From: Methanoculleus caldifontis | Lineage (GTDB): Archaea; Halobacteriota; Methanomicrobia; Methanomicrobiales; Methanoculleaceae | NCBI RefSeq assembly: GCF_032842345.1 | Contig: NZ_WBKO01000001.1 | Location: forward strand, 682,001 to 746,000 | Direction of reading: 5' to 3' | DNA length: 64,000 nt | In this document: positions 6,679 through 55,941 of the stretch, piece by piece | Position numbering within the stretch: position 1 is the stretch's first letter | Layout: every line of letters starts with the position of its first letter | Position numbers and translations under genes: made by a program | Notes under the pieces: model-generated | What the model was told of the DNA's origin: nothing | Seen by the model: the letters and a program-made list of their open reading frames with translations, nothing else | Database searches by the model: none

Positions 6679-6759
6679 ATGGTTCTCATGGTCGCTGGGG
6701 GGGCAGGGAGTGCGACCTTTGACGGGAATTTTCCCCTGAGCCAAAAAAGGAAGTTCCGG

Positions 6760-8412
6760 TTACGCTCCGGCATACACCCCGGAGCCGACGAACCATTTCT
6801 CGTCCACCGGAGCGACGTAGCAGAGTTTGAGCCCGTCAAGCCCGGTATCCGGGTTGTAATAGGTGACGTAGACGAACCCGCCCCCGGCCTCTGCTGCGGC
6901 GCTCTCAAGCAGGATCACCCTGACGCCGTACCGGTCCTCGAAGTCGAGACGGTTCTTCCCGATGAGATCGGGCTGGTAGGGGAGGGCGAGCGTCGTCCCG
7001 TCCGTCCCGTAAGCAAAGATGTATGCCCCGCCGTCGGCGAAGTCACCGGAAAGGTCGTTGAAGGCTGCGCATGCCGTCTCTCTCCCCTGCTCCTGAGCAA
7101 AGCCCCTTGCGGCCTTCACCCGCTGGACGAGCGTCTCCCTGACGCTTGTGTTGAAGTCGGTCGCGACCTCAGGGATGTAGATCCCCGACCCGACGAACCA
7201 GGTCCCGTCTACGGGGAGGACGTAGCCGAGTTTGAGTTCCTCCGCGTACCCCCGCGCCGGGTTCGGGTAGAGATAGTAGATGCTGCCGCCCCCTTCCGCC
7301 GCAAGCCTGCTCATGCCGTAGATATACGCCACGCCGCTTGAGTCGTGCACTTCGCTACGGTTCGTCCCGATGAACGCCGGCTGGAAGGGAAGGGCAAGGA
7401 CGGTGCTGTTCATGTCGTAGGCGAAAATGTAGAGCTCATCCCTGGCGAATTCTCCGTCGGGGTCGTTGAACGCGGCAAGTGCCTCCGTCCGGTCGTGCTC
7501 CCGTGCATACGCCGCAGCAGAGGCGACGAAAGCCTTCATCTCCTCGGCCGCATCCGCCGCAGGGGGCCTCTCGCCTGCCGGGGCCTGCTGCCGCTCCGCT
7601 GCGTCGAGGTTCCGCGTGACGACGACGCGCCATTCGGCTCCGTCGATCCCGGCAGTCCCCCAGATCGCCTCCTTGGTCACGTTCCGCTCCCAGCTCCGGT
7701 CCCAGAACGAATACTCAAGAGATCCCGTGGGTTCGGCGACGATCCGGGCAAACGCTTCCTGGAGCCCCGGTACCTGGTAATCGGGGTCCGAGAAGAGGTT
7801 GCGCCCGATCTCCTCGGGGGTGGTGTCGTAGATCACCCGCCCGTCGGTCTGCGCCACCCAGATGTCGTACGGGGTGCCGTTCGTCAGGGGCGCGATCGTC
7901 CGTCCGATGAGGGCGTCGGGCCTGTAGGCGATGCTGACGAATCCCAGGTACTCCGTCCCGCAGATCGGGTAGCTCTGGGTGATCCCGGTGAATCCCTCAT
8001 TGAGGTAGAAGGCCTCGCTCATGAGCGGCGCCCGCTCCCGGACCGCTCGCTGAACCTGCGGCTGGGACGAGACGTCCGTGTTCACGAGGCCGGCATAGTT
8101 CTCGGGCACGGCCATAACCACGATACCATCTCTCGATATCACGAGGTATGACTCGGCCCAGGGGTACTCCAGCAGCGTCTGCTTCAGTGCTTCTTTCCCT
8201 GCAGCGCCCGAAAGCCCGGTCTCGCCGAGCACCCGGGCATCCTCCCCGAGCGAAGCCCCGACCGAGGCGAGCTCCTGATCTATCGCGAGGACGGCCTCCT
8301 GGAGGACGGCGTCCCGGGTCGTCTGCAGGGGGGGCTGGCTCTCTTCCATGCAGCCTGCTCCGAGCACCGTGACGGCGATGACGAGAGCGGCAGCGATCGT
8401 ACATATGCGCAT
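6760..8412 (-). CDS. Cache-domain lipoprotein, putative extracellular sensor
   Basis: 550 residues. The signal peptide has lipobox-like GAGC (residues 19-22). The N-terminal third (~30-280) resembles a double Cache domain (ESYLVISRDGIVVMAVPENY, SYPICGTEYLGFVSIAYRPDALI). It is followed by two tandem single-Cache-like units (~300-420 and ~430-550), each with YIFAYDMNSTVLALPFQP or YIFAYGTDGTTLALPYQP and ending DGTWFVGSGIY or DEKWFVGSGVY. There is no transmembrane signalling output, so it probably binds a ligand outside the cell and hands the signal to a partner. Two near-identical Cache units suggest internal duplication. Confidence 0.8.
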   Translation of the reverse strand: MRICTIAAALVIAVTVLGAGCMEESQPPLQTTRDAVLQEAVLAIDQELASVGASLGEDARVLGETGLSGAAGKEALKQTLLEYPWAESYLVISRDGIVVMAVPENYAGLVNTDVSSQPQVQRAVRERAPLMSEAFYLNEGFTGITQSYPICGTEYLGFVSIAYRPDALIGRTIAPLTNGTPYDIWVAQTDGRVIYDTTPEEIGRNLFSDPDYQVPGLQEAFARIVAEPTGSLEYSFWDRSWERNVTKEAIWGTAGIDGAEWRVVVTRNLDAAERQQAPAGERPPAADAAEEMKAFVASAAAYAREHDRTEALAAFNDPDGEFARDELYIFAYDMNSTVLALPFQPAFIGTNRSEVHDSSGVAYIYGMSRLAAEGGGSIYYLYPNPARGYAEELKLGYVLPVDGTWFVGSGIYIPEVATDFNTSVRETLVQRVKAARGFAQEQGRETACAAFNDLSGDFADGGAYIFAYGTDGTTLALPYQPDLIGKNRLDFEDRYGVRVILLESAAAEAGGGFVYVTYYNPDTGLDGLKLCYVAPVDEKWFVGSGVYAGA

Positions 8413-51664: not shown

Positions 51665-52915
51665 TTAACAACGCACCGACCACCTTAGGAAAAATGCAAA
51701 GTATGGATCGAGAATATACAGTGTGGTGCTGTCCTTGTCCCACTCGATAAGTCTGGGCTTGCCTTCTGAATGACTCGAAATGAGTTCCATCTGCGCTAAG
51801 ACCCTTGAAACCTCATGAAGTTGAGGAATATTTTCGTCTAGAACCGATCTTAACTGCGTCCTTATTTGTTCGTACCTTGTTTCCATCTCTGGGCCCGTGT
51901 TAGCCAAAGCTTGCAAAACCGCTGCATAAATATCCCCTTCTGTTCCGTCAACGAAACGTCTTTTAATTCGGTCCGTTCTTTGTCGGGGCCCCCTAAGCAA
52001 AAGTGCATAATCATTTTTTGAGGTAATTTTGTCGGTAATGCCTTTAAAGAAGCCTGCCATTGAGGGTGTAAATGTGATCGGTGTAACATCTGGAGTTGTT
52101 TCTCGAATATTGTTGGATTTACATAAACTCTCACAAAATTCTTGCATTAATTGTGGATTTCCATAACTTTCATCCGCCAATGCCCTATTTTGTTCTCTTG
52201 GTGAGGTAACATTTAGTAATGGGAATCCCTTTTCTGCAATCTCGATTAGTTCCTCTGTTCCCCACAATGGGATCTTTAATTGTTGTACCCGACCTGTCAT
52301 CTCAGATTCAACTTTTACTGCGTCATATGCACGATGAGGAACAGACAGTAAAACGACACGTAACCCCTCGAAAATGGGGTTTTTCAGGGACCTAATTATT
52401 TGAGTTTGGACTTCTGGGGGGATATAATGAAAATCGTCAATAATAACTGGAATATTCTGCTTTTCTAGATTTCTTATGGCTGCGTTTCGCGGGGTGTCAT
52501 ACCGTGAGTATATTGTGGTAATACCCTTAGTGGAGGTGGTACTCCCTCCTAGAGATCCGCTCCCTTTAGCAACGACAGCATTTATTCCCCCCTCCACACT
52601 CGTAGATAACGTTTGATTATCTTCACTTCTTATTTCTGAACTAACGTTAGTGAATGCGTCTAAACGCTCGATGATATTTATCCAGAAGTCATTTTCCTCT
52701 CGGATTTCTCCACCCGAAACCCATATCCCGCTTTTCTTAGAAATTACTTTTCTACAGAGAACTGTCTTTCCCGACTTAGTAGGTCCAGTTAGAGAGAGTA
52801 GCTTATATCCCGTATCCAAATAATCTTTCAATTGATTTTCTAACTCTAATTCGTCCCTGGGGTTGTACGTATGAAGTGGAAAGCCGCCTGGAGTAAAGAC
52901 GTCCTCTATGCGCAT
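51665..52915 (-). CDS. AT-rich AAA/STAND-like ATPase of the integrated element
   Basis: 416 residues. Walker A is SLTGPTKSGKTVLCRKV (about 40-55), Walker B IPVIIDDFHYIPPE (~157), and a sensor-like LRVVLLSVPHRAYD follows. The C-terminal part is winged-helix-like and ends TTLYILDPYFAFFLRW, recalling the DPFF.F..RF end of archaeal DUF234-type ATPases. AT-rich codon use (ATT, AAT, TTA) contrasts with all neighbours, so it was acquired. Function may be defence or element maintenance; no partner effector is seen. Confidence 0.72.
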   Translation of the reverse strand: MRIEDVFTPGGFPLHTYNPRDELELENQLKDYLDTGYKLLSLTGPTKSGKTVLCRKVISKKSGIWVSGGEIREENDFWINIIERLDAFTNVSSEIRSEDNQTLSTSVEGGINAVVAKGSGSLGGSTTSTKGITTIYSRYDTPRNAAIRNLEKQNIPVIIDDFHYIPPEVQTQIIRSLKNPIFEGLRVVLLSVPHRAYDAVKVESEMTGRVQQLKIPLWGTEELIEIAEKGFPLLNVTSPREQNRALADESYGNPQLMQEFCESLCKSNNIRETTPDVTPITFTPSMAGFFKGITDKITSKNDYALLLRGPRQRTDRIKRRFVDGTEGDIYAAVLQALANTGPEMETRYEQIRTQLRSVLDENIPQLHEVSRVLAQMELISSHSEGKPRLIEWDKDSTTLYILDPYFAFFLRWSVRC

Positions 52916-53323: not shown

Positions 53324-53557
53324 ATGGCAAAAGAAAAGGAATACGTGCGAAAGAGGAGAAGATTGAACATTACGATCTCGGATCAGGCGCATGATTTTCT
53401 GAAAAACCAAGTCACCAATGCGTCCCGATTTATAGAGCGCCTAATCGAAGAGGCTGAAAACGAAATCCAAGCAATGATTGTTACGATTTCCCCGATTAAA
53501 GGTGGGCCCGGAGGGATTCGAACCCACGACCGCCCGGTTATGAGCCGGGCGCTCTGA
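53324..53557 (+). CDS. ribbon-helix-helix DNA-binding protein running into the tRNA gene
   Basis: 77 residues from MAKEKEYVRKRRR. RRRLNITISDQAHDFLKNQVTNASRFIERLIEEAENEI is a complete RHH unit (beta strand plus two helices). The last ~17 residues (GGPGGIRTHDRPVMSRAL) are antisense translation of the tRNA/att site, so the original C-terminus was replaced or extended at the integration junction. Likely autoregulator binding the palindromes upstream. Confidence 0.72.
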   Translation: MAKEKEYVRKRRRLNITISDQAHDFLKNQVTNASRFIERLIEEAENEIQAMIVTISPIKGGPGGIRTHDRPVMSRAL

Positions 53558-53577
53558 CCGGACTAAGCTACGGGCCC
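53503..53577 (-). tRNA. tRNA with CAT anticodon (Ile2 or elongator Met)
   Basis: Acceptor GGGCCCG/CGGGCCC with discriminator A, D arm GCTTA...AGAGC, anticodon stem CCCGG/CCGGG around CTCATAA, T arm GTGGG-TTCGAAT-CCCTC. The T stem has a T-T mismatch at its second pair. No CCA encoded. The CAT anticodon may be Met or lysidine/agmatidine-modified Ile2; the GGGCCCG acceptor leans to Ile2. It is the integration site of the element. Confidence 0.9.
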
Positions 53578-53828
53578 GAGAAGTGTGATGCAGCCGGTCT
53601 GAATCGGGAAATGACGCATTCAGCTCGAATTTCCGGGAGTTCCCGGACTCTCACTGCATATAAATATTGTTCCTTGATCATAAAAACATTGTGCGCGTTC
53701 TGCAGGGCAGCCGCATGCCATACAGGCGCAACGTCCGGAACTCCGCCATGCAGACCTGCGGAAGGACCTCCAGCGCCTGTAGTCCGGGAGACTGCCTGCG
53801 AAACGCTCTGGGAAACTCCTTACTGTAT

Positions 53829-54110
53829 CTACTGGTGCTGCTCTTTCCACTTCATCCAGTTGTTGTAGGCGTTCATATCCCTCTGCTTGAGGGTCTCCTG
53901 GATCTTGTTGTCGATCTCGGTGGTCGTCATCCCGCTGTGCGTGCTGCTCTGGATCTGCTGGGTGATCTCGTCCGCCAGTTTCTGGTCCGCTCCGGCGTTC
54001 TGGATCGACTTCCTGATCTTGTCAGGGTTGAACTGCTCCTCCTGGTTGTTGGTCTTCCGGACCATGGTCTCCTGCCAGGACCGGGACTCCATCTGCTGCT
54101 GTTCCGCCAT
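53829..54110 (-). CDS. stand-alone ATP-cone domain protein
   Basis: 93 residues from MAEQQQMES, chosen because GGTGAT lies 4 nt upstream. TMVRKTNNQEEQFNPDKIRKSIQNAG then ADEITQQIQSSTHSGMTTTEIDNKIQETL matches the ATP-cone, the nucleotide-sensing module normally at the N-terminus of ribonucleotide reductase or in NrdR. Here it is nearly the whole protein, with a Trp/Gln-rich tail, so it may act in trans on another enzyme. Confidence 0.75.
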   Translation of the reverse strand: MAEQQQMESRSWQETMVRKTNNQEEQFNPDKIRKSIQNAGADQKLADEITQQIQSSTHSGMTTTEIDNKIQETLKQRDMNAYNNWMKWKEQHQ

Positions 54111-54125
54111 TTTCATCACCATCAA

Positions 54126-54588
54126 TTATCTGTTCTGTTTTCCTGAATCGAGGTCCGGGCGCCCGTTTTATTCCGGCTCTCTGTCCCCCGGATAGCGATC
54201 TCCGGGAGCTCCACCCAACCCCGCTTCGGTTGCAAGCTGCAGCCTGCCGGGCAACAGTGGGATATCGGATACTTATAAGTTGCGGCTGTTGGCCATCCCG
54301 CTCTTCCCGGCGAAGCAATCGGCGAACGGTGCCCTCCCGGGCGACTAAGAACAATATCGCCCATCTGCGTGGGGCATGCTGTCAGGCGGCGCCGATGCGG
54401 AGGAGAGAATGACTGGTAAGGGGTGCGTGAATCTATGGGGCCGATACGGTCCGAACCCGCGGCCGCCCGAAAACAAACGTCCCGACCCACGGAATCCGGG
54501 AACGGCAGCAACTCGTGCCGTCCCTTGAGTCCGTGCAGATCTGGTGCACATAAACGTCTCCCTCGAACGATAAATACGTTCTGCGGCC
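54126..54588 (-). other. 463-bp intergenic region with a possible small RNA
   Basis: No protein gene supported. On the minus strand CGTATTTATCG (54568-54578) is TATA-like; some 45 nt on, GGGACGGCA/TGCCGTTCCC (54524-54498) forms a strong hairpin, with GTGC/GCAC just before it. A second TATA-like CTTATAAG near 54275 may serve the ATP-cone gene. Confidence 0.35.
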
Positions 54589-55941
54589 CTACGCCTCCCG
54601 CGCCGCCGGGTCGGCCTTCCGGATGGCCGCGAGCACTTCCCGCACCTTCTCGTCCATGAGTTCCTTCGTCTCCGCCTCCAGGTTCAGCCGCACCACCGGC
54701 TCGGTGTGGGAGCGGCGGATGTTGAACCACCAGTCGGGGTAGCCCGCCGTCAGCCCGTCGAGGCGGTCGAGGTCCGCGTCCCGGTAGAGCGCCGCAAGCA
54801 CCGCGAGGACCGCTGCCGGGTCGCTCACCCTGAGGTTGATCTCCCCGGTCGAGGAGTAGCGGTCGAGGGGCCGGACGAGTTCCGAGAGGCTCCGGCCGCT
54901 CGCGGCGATGAGGTTTGCGACCAGCACCATCGTCAGGAGCCCGTTGTCGACGAACCCCATCTCCCGGTAGTAGTAGTGCCCGGAGAGTTCCCCGGCAAAG
55001 AGGGCGTCCTCCTCCCGCATCAGGGCCTTGATGAAGGCGTGGCCCACCCGGGACCGGACAGGCCGCCCTCCCGCCTCCCCGATCACCTCGACGACCGCCC
55101 GGCTCGACCGCAGATCGTAGAGGATCGCCGCCCCCGGGTTCTCTTCGAGCAGGAACGCCGCGATGAGCCCGGTCACCAGGTCCTCGCGGACGCGCCTTCC
55201 CCGCTCGTCGACGAACCCGCACCGGTCCCCGTCGCCGTCGAACGCGACCCCGAACTCCGCGCCCTCGGCCACGACCCGGTCCTGCAGTTCCCGGGTGGTC
55301 GCGGGGTCGAGGGGGTTCGCGTGGTGGTGGGGGAACCGCCCGTCGGGTTCGAGATACATCGGCACGAGCCCCCACGCCGGGACCCGCTCGAAGAGCCGGG
55401 GGACCTCCGGCCCGGCCATCCCGTTCCCTGCGTCCACGACGATCGTGAGCGGCCGGGGGTTCCGCACGAACCCGGCCACCTTCCCGATGTAGGCATCAAG
55501 CATCTCGAGCCGGCGGCAGGACCCGCCGGCGCGGGCGACTGGTTCCTCCCCCACCCGGGTCTCGAGAAGGGGGAGGTCCCGGTCCCCGGAGAGGGGAACG
55601 GCGTTCTCGCGGTCCAGTTTGAACCCGTTCATCTCCCCGGGGAGGTGGGAGGCCGTCACCATCGCCCCGCCGTCGAACCCCCCGGCGGTGACGGCGTAGT
55701 TGAGGAGCGGGGTGCTCGCCATACCGATATCGGCGACCTCCGCCCCGGCCTCGACTGCCCCGCGGGAGAACGCCCGGGCGAGCGATGGCGACGAGAGACG
55801 CATGTCCCGGCCGACGACGATCCGCTCCGCCGCGAGGAGCCCGACGAAGGCGTTCCCGATCCTCCGCGCCGTCGCTTCGTCGAGCTCGTCCGGGTAGCGC
55901 CCCCGGATATCGTAAGCCCGGAAGATCCCGGCCACGATCAC
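54589..55941 (-). CDS. manB: phosphomannomutase/phosphoglucomutase
   Basis: 450 residues. Interconverts hexose 1- and 6-phosphates for glycan synthesis. Family sites: FRAYDIRGRYPDEL, VVGRDMRLSS, the phosphoserine loop MVTASHLPGEMNGFK (family TASHNP with Leu for Asn), metal loop FDGDGDRCGFVD, sugar-binding GELSGHYYYRE, and phosphate loop RRSHTEPVVRLN. It overlaps the nifS-like gene by 4 nt. Confidence 0.92.
   Translation of the reverse strand: MIVAGIFRAYDIRGRYPDELDEATARRIGNAFVGLLAAERIVVGRDMRLSSPSLARAFSRGAVEAGAEVADIGMASTPLLNYAVTAGGFDGGAMVTASHLPGEMNGFKLDRENAVPLSGDRDLPLLETRVGEEPVARAGGSCRRLEMLDAYIGKVAGFVRNPRPLTIVVDAGNGMAGPEVPRLFERVPAWGLVPMYLEPDGRFPHHHANPLDPATTRELQDRVVAEGAEFGVAFDGDGDRCGFVDERGRRVREDLVTGLIAAFLLEENPGAAILYDLRSSRAVVEVIGEAGGRPVRSRVGHAFIKALMREEDALFAGELSGHYYYREMGFVDNGLLTMVLVANLIAASGRSLSELVRPLDRYSSTGEINLRVSDPAAVLAVLAALYRDADLDRLDGLTAGYPDWWFNIRRSHTEPVVRLNLEAETKELMDEKVREVLAAIRKADPAAREA

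What the first reader, a model, noticed from the sequence alone, without database searches (positions are those of the whole stretch)
53829..54110. ATP-cone as a stand-alone protein
The allosteric nucleotide sensor of ribonucleotide reductase is encoded alone, with no reductase or NrdR zinc ribbon. It may regulate a reductase in trans.
Basis: partly seen in the sequence, partly recalled or inferred. Interest (0 to 1): 0.5.

Follow-up and report, generated by a model that had tools for sequence, protein, structure and literature searches.

The report
Free-standing ATP-cone protein in Methanoculleus
A methane-making archaeon encodes the ATP-sensing switch of ribonucleotide reductase as a separate small protein, whose conserved sequence and codon use suggest that it binds nucleotides and is made in quantity, but what it controls is unknown.

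Summary
Window 53829-54110 (minus strand) encodes a 93-aa protein that is a single ATP-cone (Pfam PF03477, 46.5 bits, cut-off 25.8) with no zinc ribbon, cysteine or reductase. The host is a Methanoculleus (archaeon). The gene is real: 16 of 35 genus genomes carry it, plus two relatives. It has its own conserved promoter, leader and ribosome site. The AlphaFold2 model matches solved ATP-cones of NrdR and reductases. Of six NrdR nucleotide-site residues, five are kept at identical spacing (R51 is lost), so nucleotide binding is likely but untested.

Codon choice is mcrA-like, and two-fold codons hardly vary between species (3 of 33 sites, against 40-53% in three neighbouring genes), suggesting an abundant protein.

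'Regulates a reductase in trans' is not excluded but has no positive support beyond the fold. The class II enzyme has no cone and the class III cone has lost key residues, yet reductase content is the same with or without this gene, and nothing links it to nrd genes.

New: where relatives lack the gene, pmm runs straight into tRNA-Met; three carriers keep a decayed tRNA-Met copy upstream, so the cassette was probably inserted at that tRNA.

The parts
53829..54110 (-). coding sequence of the stand-alone ATP-cone, 93 aa plus stop TAG
54115..54120 (-). Shine-Dalgarno-like GGTGAT, four bases before the ATG; motif kept in 21 of 22 rows
54195..54290 (-). conserved promoter and leader: TATA-like box (CTTATAAGTATCC, 54267-54279) and the GTTGC...GCAAC stretch downstream; median identity 0.90 for 54210-54290 against 0.67 for 54290-54420; no second copy found in the genome
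   Evidence: the TATA role is recalled from general knowledge of archaeal promoters
54436..54469 (-). remnant of the ancestral tRNA-Met 3' half (16 of 18 bases at 54452-54469); much better kept in L035 and L034
54530..54588 (-). vestige of the ancestral tRNA-Met promoter (ACGTATTTATCG at 54568-54579), directly after pmm
53501..53577 (-). intact tRNA-Met (CAU) downstream of the cone, with its own conserved promoter stretch at 53630-53700
54589..55941 (-). upstream neighbour, phosphomannomutase-type gene ('pmm', name recalled; not scanned against Pfam here)

Best explanation
It is a free-standing adenine-nucleotide sensor. SHOWN: one ATP-cone and nothing else, conserved, with its own promoter-like leader and ribosome site, five of six NrdR nucleotide-site residues kept, and codon use like that of the methyl-coenzyme M reductase gene. 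INFERRED: the cell makes much of it; it binds ATP (and perhaps dATP) under the beta-hairpin roof, with W88 stacking on a second nucleotide as Tyr83 does in NrdD of Prevotella copri; binding changes how the cones pair through helices 3 and 4 and the roof, as in NrdR and in reductases; and that switched assembly acts in trans on a separate partner protein, or simply holds nucleotide. The partner is not identified. A ribonucleotide reductase is one candidate and not the favoured one, because nothing couples the gene to reductase content and because the inferred abundance is high. The gene reached its place as a cassette at a tRNA-Met gene.
For: PF03477 46.5 bits. AF2 model pLDDT 83.7, two strands and four helices; the 50 best Foldseek matches in the PDB are all NrdR or reductase subunits, and VIA-align gives Z up to 11.4 over 81 residues. 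NrdR V48, K50, R51, E56, F58, K62 (PMC9110341, section 12) fall on V17, K19, T20, E25, F27, K31 with identical spacing; K, E, F, K are in 23 of 23 rows, V in 22 of 23 (I in one), R in 0 of 23. W85, W88, K89 and H92 in 23 of 23. Preferred codons 51 of 55, mcrA 226 of 240, best of 43 longer window ORFs 0.914. Two-fold codon sites variable among species: cone 3 of 33, pmm 44 of 83, csd 31 of 78, lon 100 of 215; in four matched species cone 1 of 35, mcrA 27 of 207. Four-fold sites vary nearly as in the neighbours (6 of 13), and non-coding DNA on both sides of the cone is 25-33% diverged, so the sparing is of codons rather than of the whole cassette by recent transfer.
Against: No binding, expression or interaction data. 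The R51 equivalent and the RDG turn are lost (K-T/S-N-N). Inside the genus dN/dS is not low (median over 153 pairs 0.35, single pairs up to 1.3), which reflects very low dS but could also mean weak protein constraint. Abundance rests on codon use of a short gene (55 informative codons). The gene is missing from 19 of 35 genus genomes, so it is dispensable. The comparison with mcrA alone is not significant (P 0.09).
Confidence: 0.5

Rival explanations
1. Detached reductase switch: the cone docks on NrdJ or NrdD and turns it down when dATP rises, replacing a switch that those enzymes lack.
For: NrdJ of this genome has no cone. The NrdD cone scores below the Pfam cut-off (22.6 bits) and shows T, L, W, R where NrdR has K50, E56, F58, K62 (read by eye). 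Cones can act from another subunit: Leeuwenhoekiella NrdB (PMC5794259, start of abstract and passages).
Against: No linkage to nrd genes. NrdJ present with or without the gene (15 of 16, 18 of 19). NrdD-cone scores equal in both groups. Reductases without a cone are common elsewhere: 93% of NrdJ have none (PMC4390871 Table 2). Inferred abundance argues for another or commoner partner.
Confidence: 0.15
2. Repurposed cone: the fold is kept as a self-assembling or protein-binding module and no longer senses nucleotides.
For: The R51 equivalent is lost and the RDG turn replaced in all rows, and K89 stands where NrdR has Y128. Pfam covers only positions 2-75 of 88.
Against: K19, E25, F27 and K31 are invariant; V48, K50, E56 and K62 are the residues whose mutation impaired nucleotide binding in NrdR. 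The 52%-identical relative in G031 still has them.
Confidence: 0.25
3. Selfish or leftover cargo of an element that entered at tRNA-Met, with no use to the host.
For: Cassette at a tRNA with an empty site in 8 of 13 genomes probed, decayed tRNA copy, patchy presence.
Against: Promoter, ribosome site and codons are kept over the genus while flanking DNA decays. No integrase found beside it. No relatives in phage or plasmid records; the one clear hit in viral contigs is the cone of a phage NrdD.
Confidence: 0.1

Closest known systems
ATP-cone domain of NrdR (transcriptional repressor of reductase genes)
   Same: fold and five of six cited nucleotide-site residues at the same spacing
   Different: no zinc ribbon, no cysteine, so no NrdR-type DNA binding; NrdR model 15 bits against 124.65
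N-terminal ATP-cone of anaerobic reductase NrdD (Prevotella copri, 8p23 and kin)
   Same: fold, Z 8.9-10.2; only a weak sequence match in the PDB, E 0.78
   Different: not joined to a reductase
Second stand-alone cone of Methanoculleus (L002 type, K-x-DGRREPF)
   Same: also an ATP-cone without partner domain, in 20 of 24 good genus genomes (13 of 14 carriers, 7 of 10 non-carriers, list drawn by hand)
   Different: keeps the DG turn; the L002 copy is 23% identical to the window protein; it lies elsewhere in the genome, after an RNase III-like ORF (identity by eye)
hp3 of the Methanocaldococcus FS406-22 nif cluster (PMC8809328, passages)
   Same: methanogen gene described as having an ATP cone; the authors guess that it and its neighbours encode abundant proteins
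   Different: in a nif operon; deletion of hp1-hp2-hp3-fd together had no growth defect; its sequence was not compared here
ATP-cone fused to Mrr_cat endonuclease (L003 and kin)
   Same: ATP-cone outside reductases in the same genome
   Different: fused to a nuclease domain; its cone is just below the cut-off

Membership tests
ATP-cone (PF03477) | curated profile score | tested here: met
   46.5 bits against 25.8
ATP-cone (PF03477) | beta-hairpin roof over four helices | tested here: met
[quoted passage not shown]
   V and K kept, RDG replaced by T/S-N-N (G-T-G in L015). This is a signature of reductase cones and not of the whole family; the profile and fold tests carry membership
ATP-cone (PF03477) | binds ATP or dATP | not testable with these tools
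   contact residues kept but no binding data
NrdR | N-terminal zinc ribbon with two CxxC motifs | tested here: not met
   no cysteine in the protein; TIGR00244 15 bits against 124.65
Ribonucleotide reductase subunit | cone on the catalytic or radical-generating chain | tested here: not met
   the ORF ends after the cone; neighbours are a pmm-type gene and a tRNA
Trans-acting reductase regulator | linkage or co-occurrence with nrd genes | tested here: not met
Trans-acting reductase regulator | physical or kinetic effect on NrdD or NrdJ | not testable with these tools
   needs purified proteins
tRNA-targeted integrative element | tRNA copies on both sides and an empty site in relatives | tested here: met
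   tRNA remnant clear in 3 of 15 regions tested; empty site in 8 of 13 genomes probed
tRNA-targeted integrative element | integrase or other mobility gene in the cassette | tested here: not met
   the cone is the only ORF with a known relative that was found between the tRNA remnant and tRNA-Met; the other ORFs listed there overlap it or are unconserved by inspection

The most novel reading that the evidence does not exclude
A diffusible allosteric switch: an abundant single-domain ATP-cone that reads the ATP/dATP state and controls enzymes in trans, in a genome whose own reductases have lost or never had a working cone. This would be allostery supplied by a separate gene that can be inserted at, and lost from, a tRNA locus.
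Probability: 0.15. Interest if true: 0.8.

Novelty: new variant of a known kind. Interest (0 to 1): 0.42.

Why it matters
The ATP-cone is the textbook mobile allosteric domain; in the passages read here it is described attached to a reductase or to a DNA-binding ribbon, with hp3 of Methanocaldococcus as the one exception met. A conserved, probably abundant free cone would show that the switch can work as a diffusible part, and it gives a roughly 11-kDa protein in which nucleotide-driven cone assembly can be studied alone. It also bears on how reductases without a working cone are restrained.

Tried and rejected
Recent transfer as the cause of the low dS (0.055-0.17 against 0.29-0.47 in neighbours): rejected, since non-coding parts of the cassette are 25-33% diverged and four-fold sites vary almost normally.

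Structured RNA leader or riboswitch: not supported (z -1.03 for the 163-nt leader; no pair with changes on both sides; no Rfam match but the tRNA). A shared regulon motif: the leader has no second copy in the genome.

Single gain on the pmm tree: not shown; carriers need three changes and most forks are weak. Deletion by recombination between the two tRNA copies could explain losses (inference).

Antisense ORFs over the gene were taken as by-products of GC-rich third positions; no relative or family match was sought for them, so this is judgement.

tRNA remnant: in 12 of the 15 upstream regions tested the match to tRNA-Met did not exceed all 300 mononucleotide shuffles; it did in L035 (57 bases), L034 (46) and the window (18). 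Rfam did not score the remnant in L034 or L035.

The first dN/dS script failed on a wrong pattern and was rerun. A PDB sequence search with a second-family cone gave no relative. Paper searches for stand-alone cones: 'ATP-cone'+'stand-alone' 0 papers, 'ATP-cone'+'methanogen' 0, a mixed search with no ATP-cone paper among the 10 listed, 'PF03477' 4 papers; nothing on free cones was seen beyond hp3, in an open-licence library only. The founding ATP-cone paper (Aravind 2000) was seen only as a reference; my recall that it may list stand-alone cones is unverified.

Full report
WHAT IS THERE. The minus-strand ORF at 53829-54110 encodes 93 aa with one confident domain, the ATP-cone (PF03477, 46.5 bits, residues 16-82). 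No NCBIfam model comes near its cut-off. The protein has no cysteine, so an NrdR-type zinc ribbon is excluded. Named relatives place the window in Methanoculleus, a methanogenic archaeon; the window lies in a 2.6-Mb assembly.

IS IT A GENE. Seventeen orthologues align with 36 invariant positions. A profile of them finds the subfamily (over 150 bits) in 18 of 232 genomes of the order: 16 of the 35 Methanoculleus genomes, one same-family genome and G031, whose copy is 52% identical. In a phylum sample of 392 genomes, 10 have it at that level, all within the order. GGTGATGA-n-AATGGC spans the start codon in 21 of 22 rows. The gene has its own conserved promoter-like leader. Between the window protein and the G031 copy dN is 0.31 and dS 1.17, as expected of a protein under selection.

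FOLD AND SITE. The AF2 model (17-row alignment, pLDDT 83.7, residues 1-9 below 50) has a two-strand hairpin and four helices. The 50 best Foldseek matches in the PDB are all NrdR or class I and III reductase subunits; none reaches E 0.001, the best being 1.1e-3. VIA-align gives Z 11.4 over 81 residues to the NrdB cone of 5olk and 10.2 to NrdR of 7p37. In S. coelicolor NrdR, K50, R51 and E56 contact the inner ATP, K62 the outer nucleotide, F58 lies by the base, and V48, K50, E56 or K62 mutants are impaired in binding (PMC9110341 section 12). The same spacing in the window gives V17, K19, T20, E25, F27 and K31. Over 23 rows K19, E25, F27 and K31 never change, V17 is I once, and the R51 position is T, S or G. 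In P. copri NrdD, Tyr83 and Arg87 line the outer site (PMC11226230 passages); by the alignment, with a numbering offset of four that I inferred from K7-R8, they match W88 and H92, both invariant. So the pocket looks kept, with changes at the phosphate end.

CODON USE. Among ten amino acids with one clearly preferred codon (a set of G- or C-ending codons that I fixed in the script) the cone uses it in 51 of 55 cases, mcrA in 226 of 240, and the best of 43 window ORFs of 150 aa or more in 0.914. Across eleven related species, two-fold sites with an unchanged amino acid vary at 3 of 33 in the cone, against 44 of 83, 31 of 78 and 100 of 215 in pmm, csd and lon (P 7e-6 to 1.4e-3); in four matched species it is 1 of 35 against 27 of 207 in mcrA (P 0.09). 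This is what selection for translation would leave, and suggests an abundant protein; it is not a measurement.

ORIGIN OF THE LOCUS. In 11 of 12 long-flank loci the order is lon, csd, pmm, cone, tRNA-Met; in L043 pmm and csd are not between. Of 13 further genomes probed with pmm, eight cone-lacking Methanoculleus have pmm followed within about 155 bases by tRNA-Met with nothing between; the other five have only distant pmm relatives without a tRNA beside them. In carriers the same old promoter follows pmm, but the tRNA there is decayed: 57 bases with 53 identical in L035, 46 bases in L034, and 18 bases (16 identical) in the window, each above 300 shuffles; the 12 other regions tested show no clear remnant. 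The leader, the cone and a second promoter with an intact tRNA-Met follow. The simplest reading is a cassette inserted at tRNA-Met that carried a fresh tRNA copy. No integrase is present, and phage and plasmid records hold no relative; of two hits in viral contigs one is the cone of a phage NrdD and the other a 23-residue match not pursued. On the pmm tree carriers need three changes, so gain followed by losses is possible.

THE REDUCTASE IDEA. The genome has NrdJ (583 aa; barrel and alpha domains only) and NrdD (a 1691-aa frame with an intein-like interruption). The NrdD cone is below the Pfam cut-off and reads T, L, W, R at the K50, E56, F58 and K62 places (by eye). So no reductase here has a clearly working cone, which makes a trans-acting cone attractive. 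But NrdJ occurs in 15 of 16 carriers and 18 of 19 non-carriers, and NrdD-cone scores are the same (16 carriers and 14 of 19 non-carriers, the rest having no listed NrdD cone of full length; P 0.23). A second stand-alone cone exists in 13 of 14 good carrier and 7 of 10 good non-carrier genomes. The link therefore stays a hypothesis.

COMPARISON. In a sample of 70 genomes of the phylum at least 95% complete, 45 have some ATP-cone. Taking short open frames, stand-alone cones appear in four (G000, G083, G038, G249); two more (G278, G312; 166 and 194 aa) look like NrdR by length and score and were not checked. The closest published case seen is hp3 in a Methanocaldococcus nif cluster, whose deletion with three neighbours had no growth defect (PMC8809328 passages). 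I file the window gene as an ATP-cone by profile and fold, not as NrdR and not as a reductase part.

VERDICT. A real, conserved and probably nucleotide-binding free cone, likely abundant, partner unknown; the reductase link is possible but unsupported.

Noticed in passing
own genome C1:523780-524142 (L084:1781-2143) and C1:880599-885671 (L085): Class III reductase seems split: the long NrdD frame ends before the glycyl-radical domain, and a separate 120-aa ORF carries the cysteine motifs and RVTGYL (PF13597 positions 503-562).
   Followed up: partly
L004 and L085, own genome C1 about 880.6-885.7 kb: The NrdD frame is 1691 aa and is interrupted by intein-like sequence; many relatives have frames of 1200-2000 aa. 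Called inteins from recall; not scanned.
   Followed up: no
L115:5534-6628 and 6704-7270 (G031): Two adjacent ORFs with cone-like ends: a 364-aa protein, low-complexity over most of its length with a C-terminal ATP-cone (32.9 bits), and a 188-aa one with part of the motif (no Pfam match).
   Followed up: partly
window 51668-52915 (-): AAA-type ATPase ORF (below Pfam cut-offs) with very unusual codons for this genome (preferred codons 0.35), just beyond the tRNA-Met: likely a recent arrival.
   Followed up: partly
window 53324-53557 (+): Short ORF whose end reads into the 3' part of tRNA-Met on the other strand; a relative 86% identical sits in the same place in L035; no Pfam match.
   Followed up: partly
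window 54195-54262 (-): Leader stretch CACTGTTGCCCGGCAGGCTGCAGCTTGCAACC nearly unchanged across the genus and largely in L043, without covarying pairs; may be an operator.
   Followed up: partly
L003:811-1638 and relatives (L018, L020, L022): ATP-cone fused to an Mrr_cat endonuclease domain (L003 scanned) occurs in several Methanoculleus genomes by sequence likeness.
   Followed up: no
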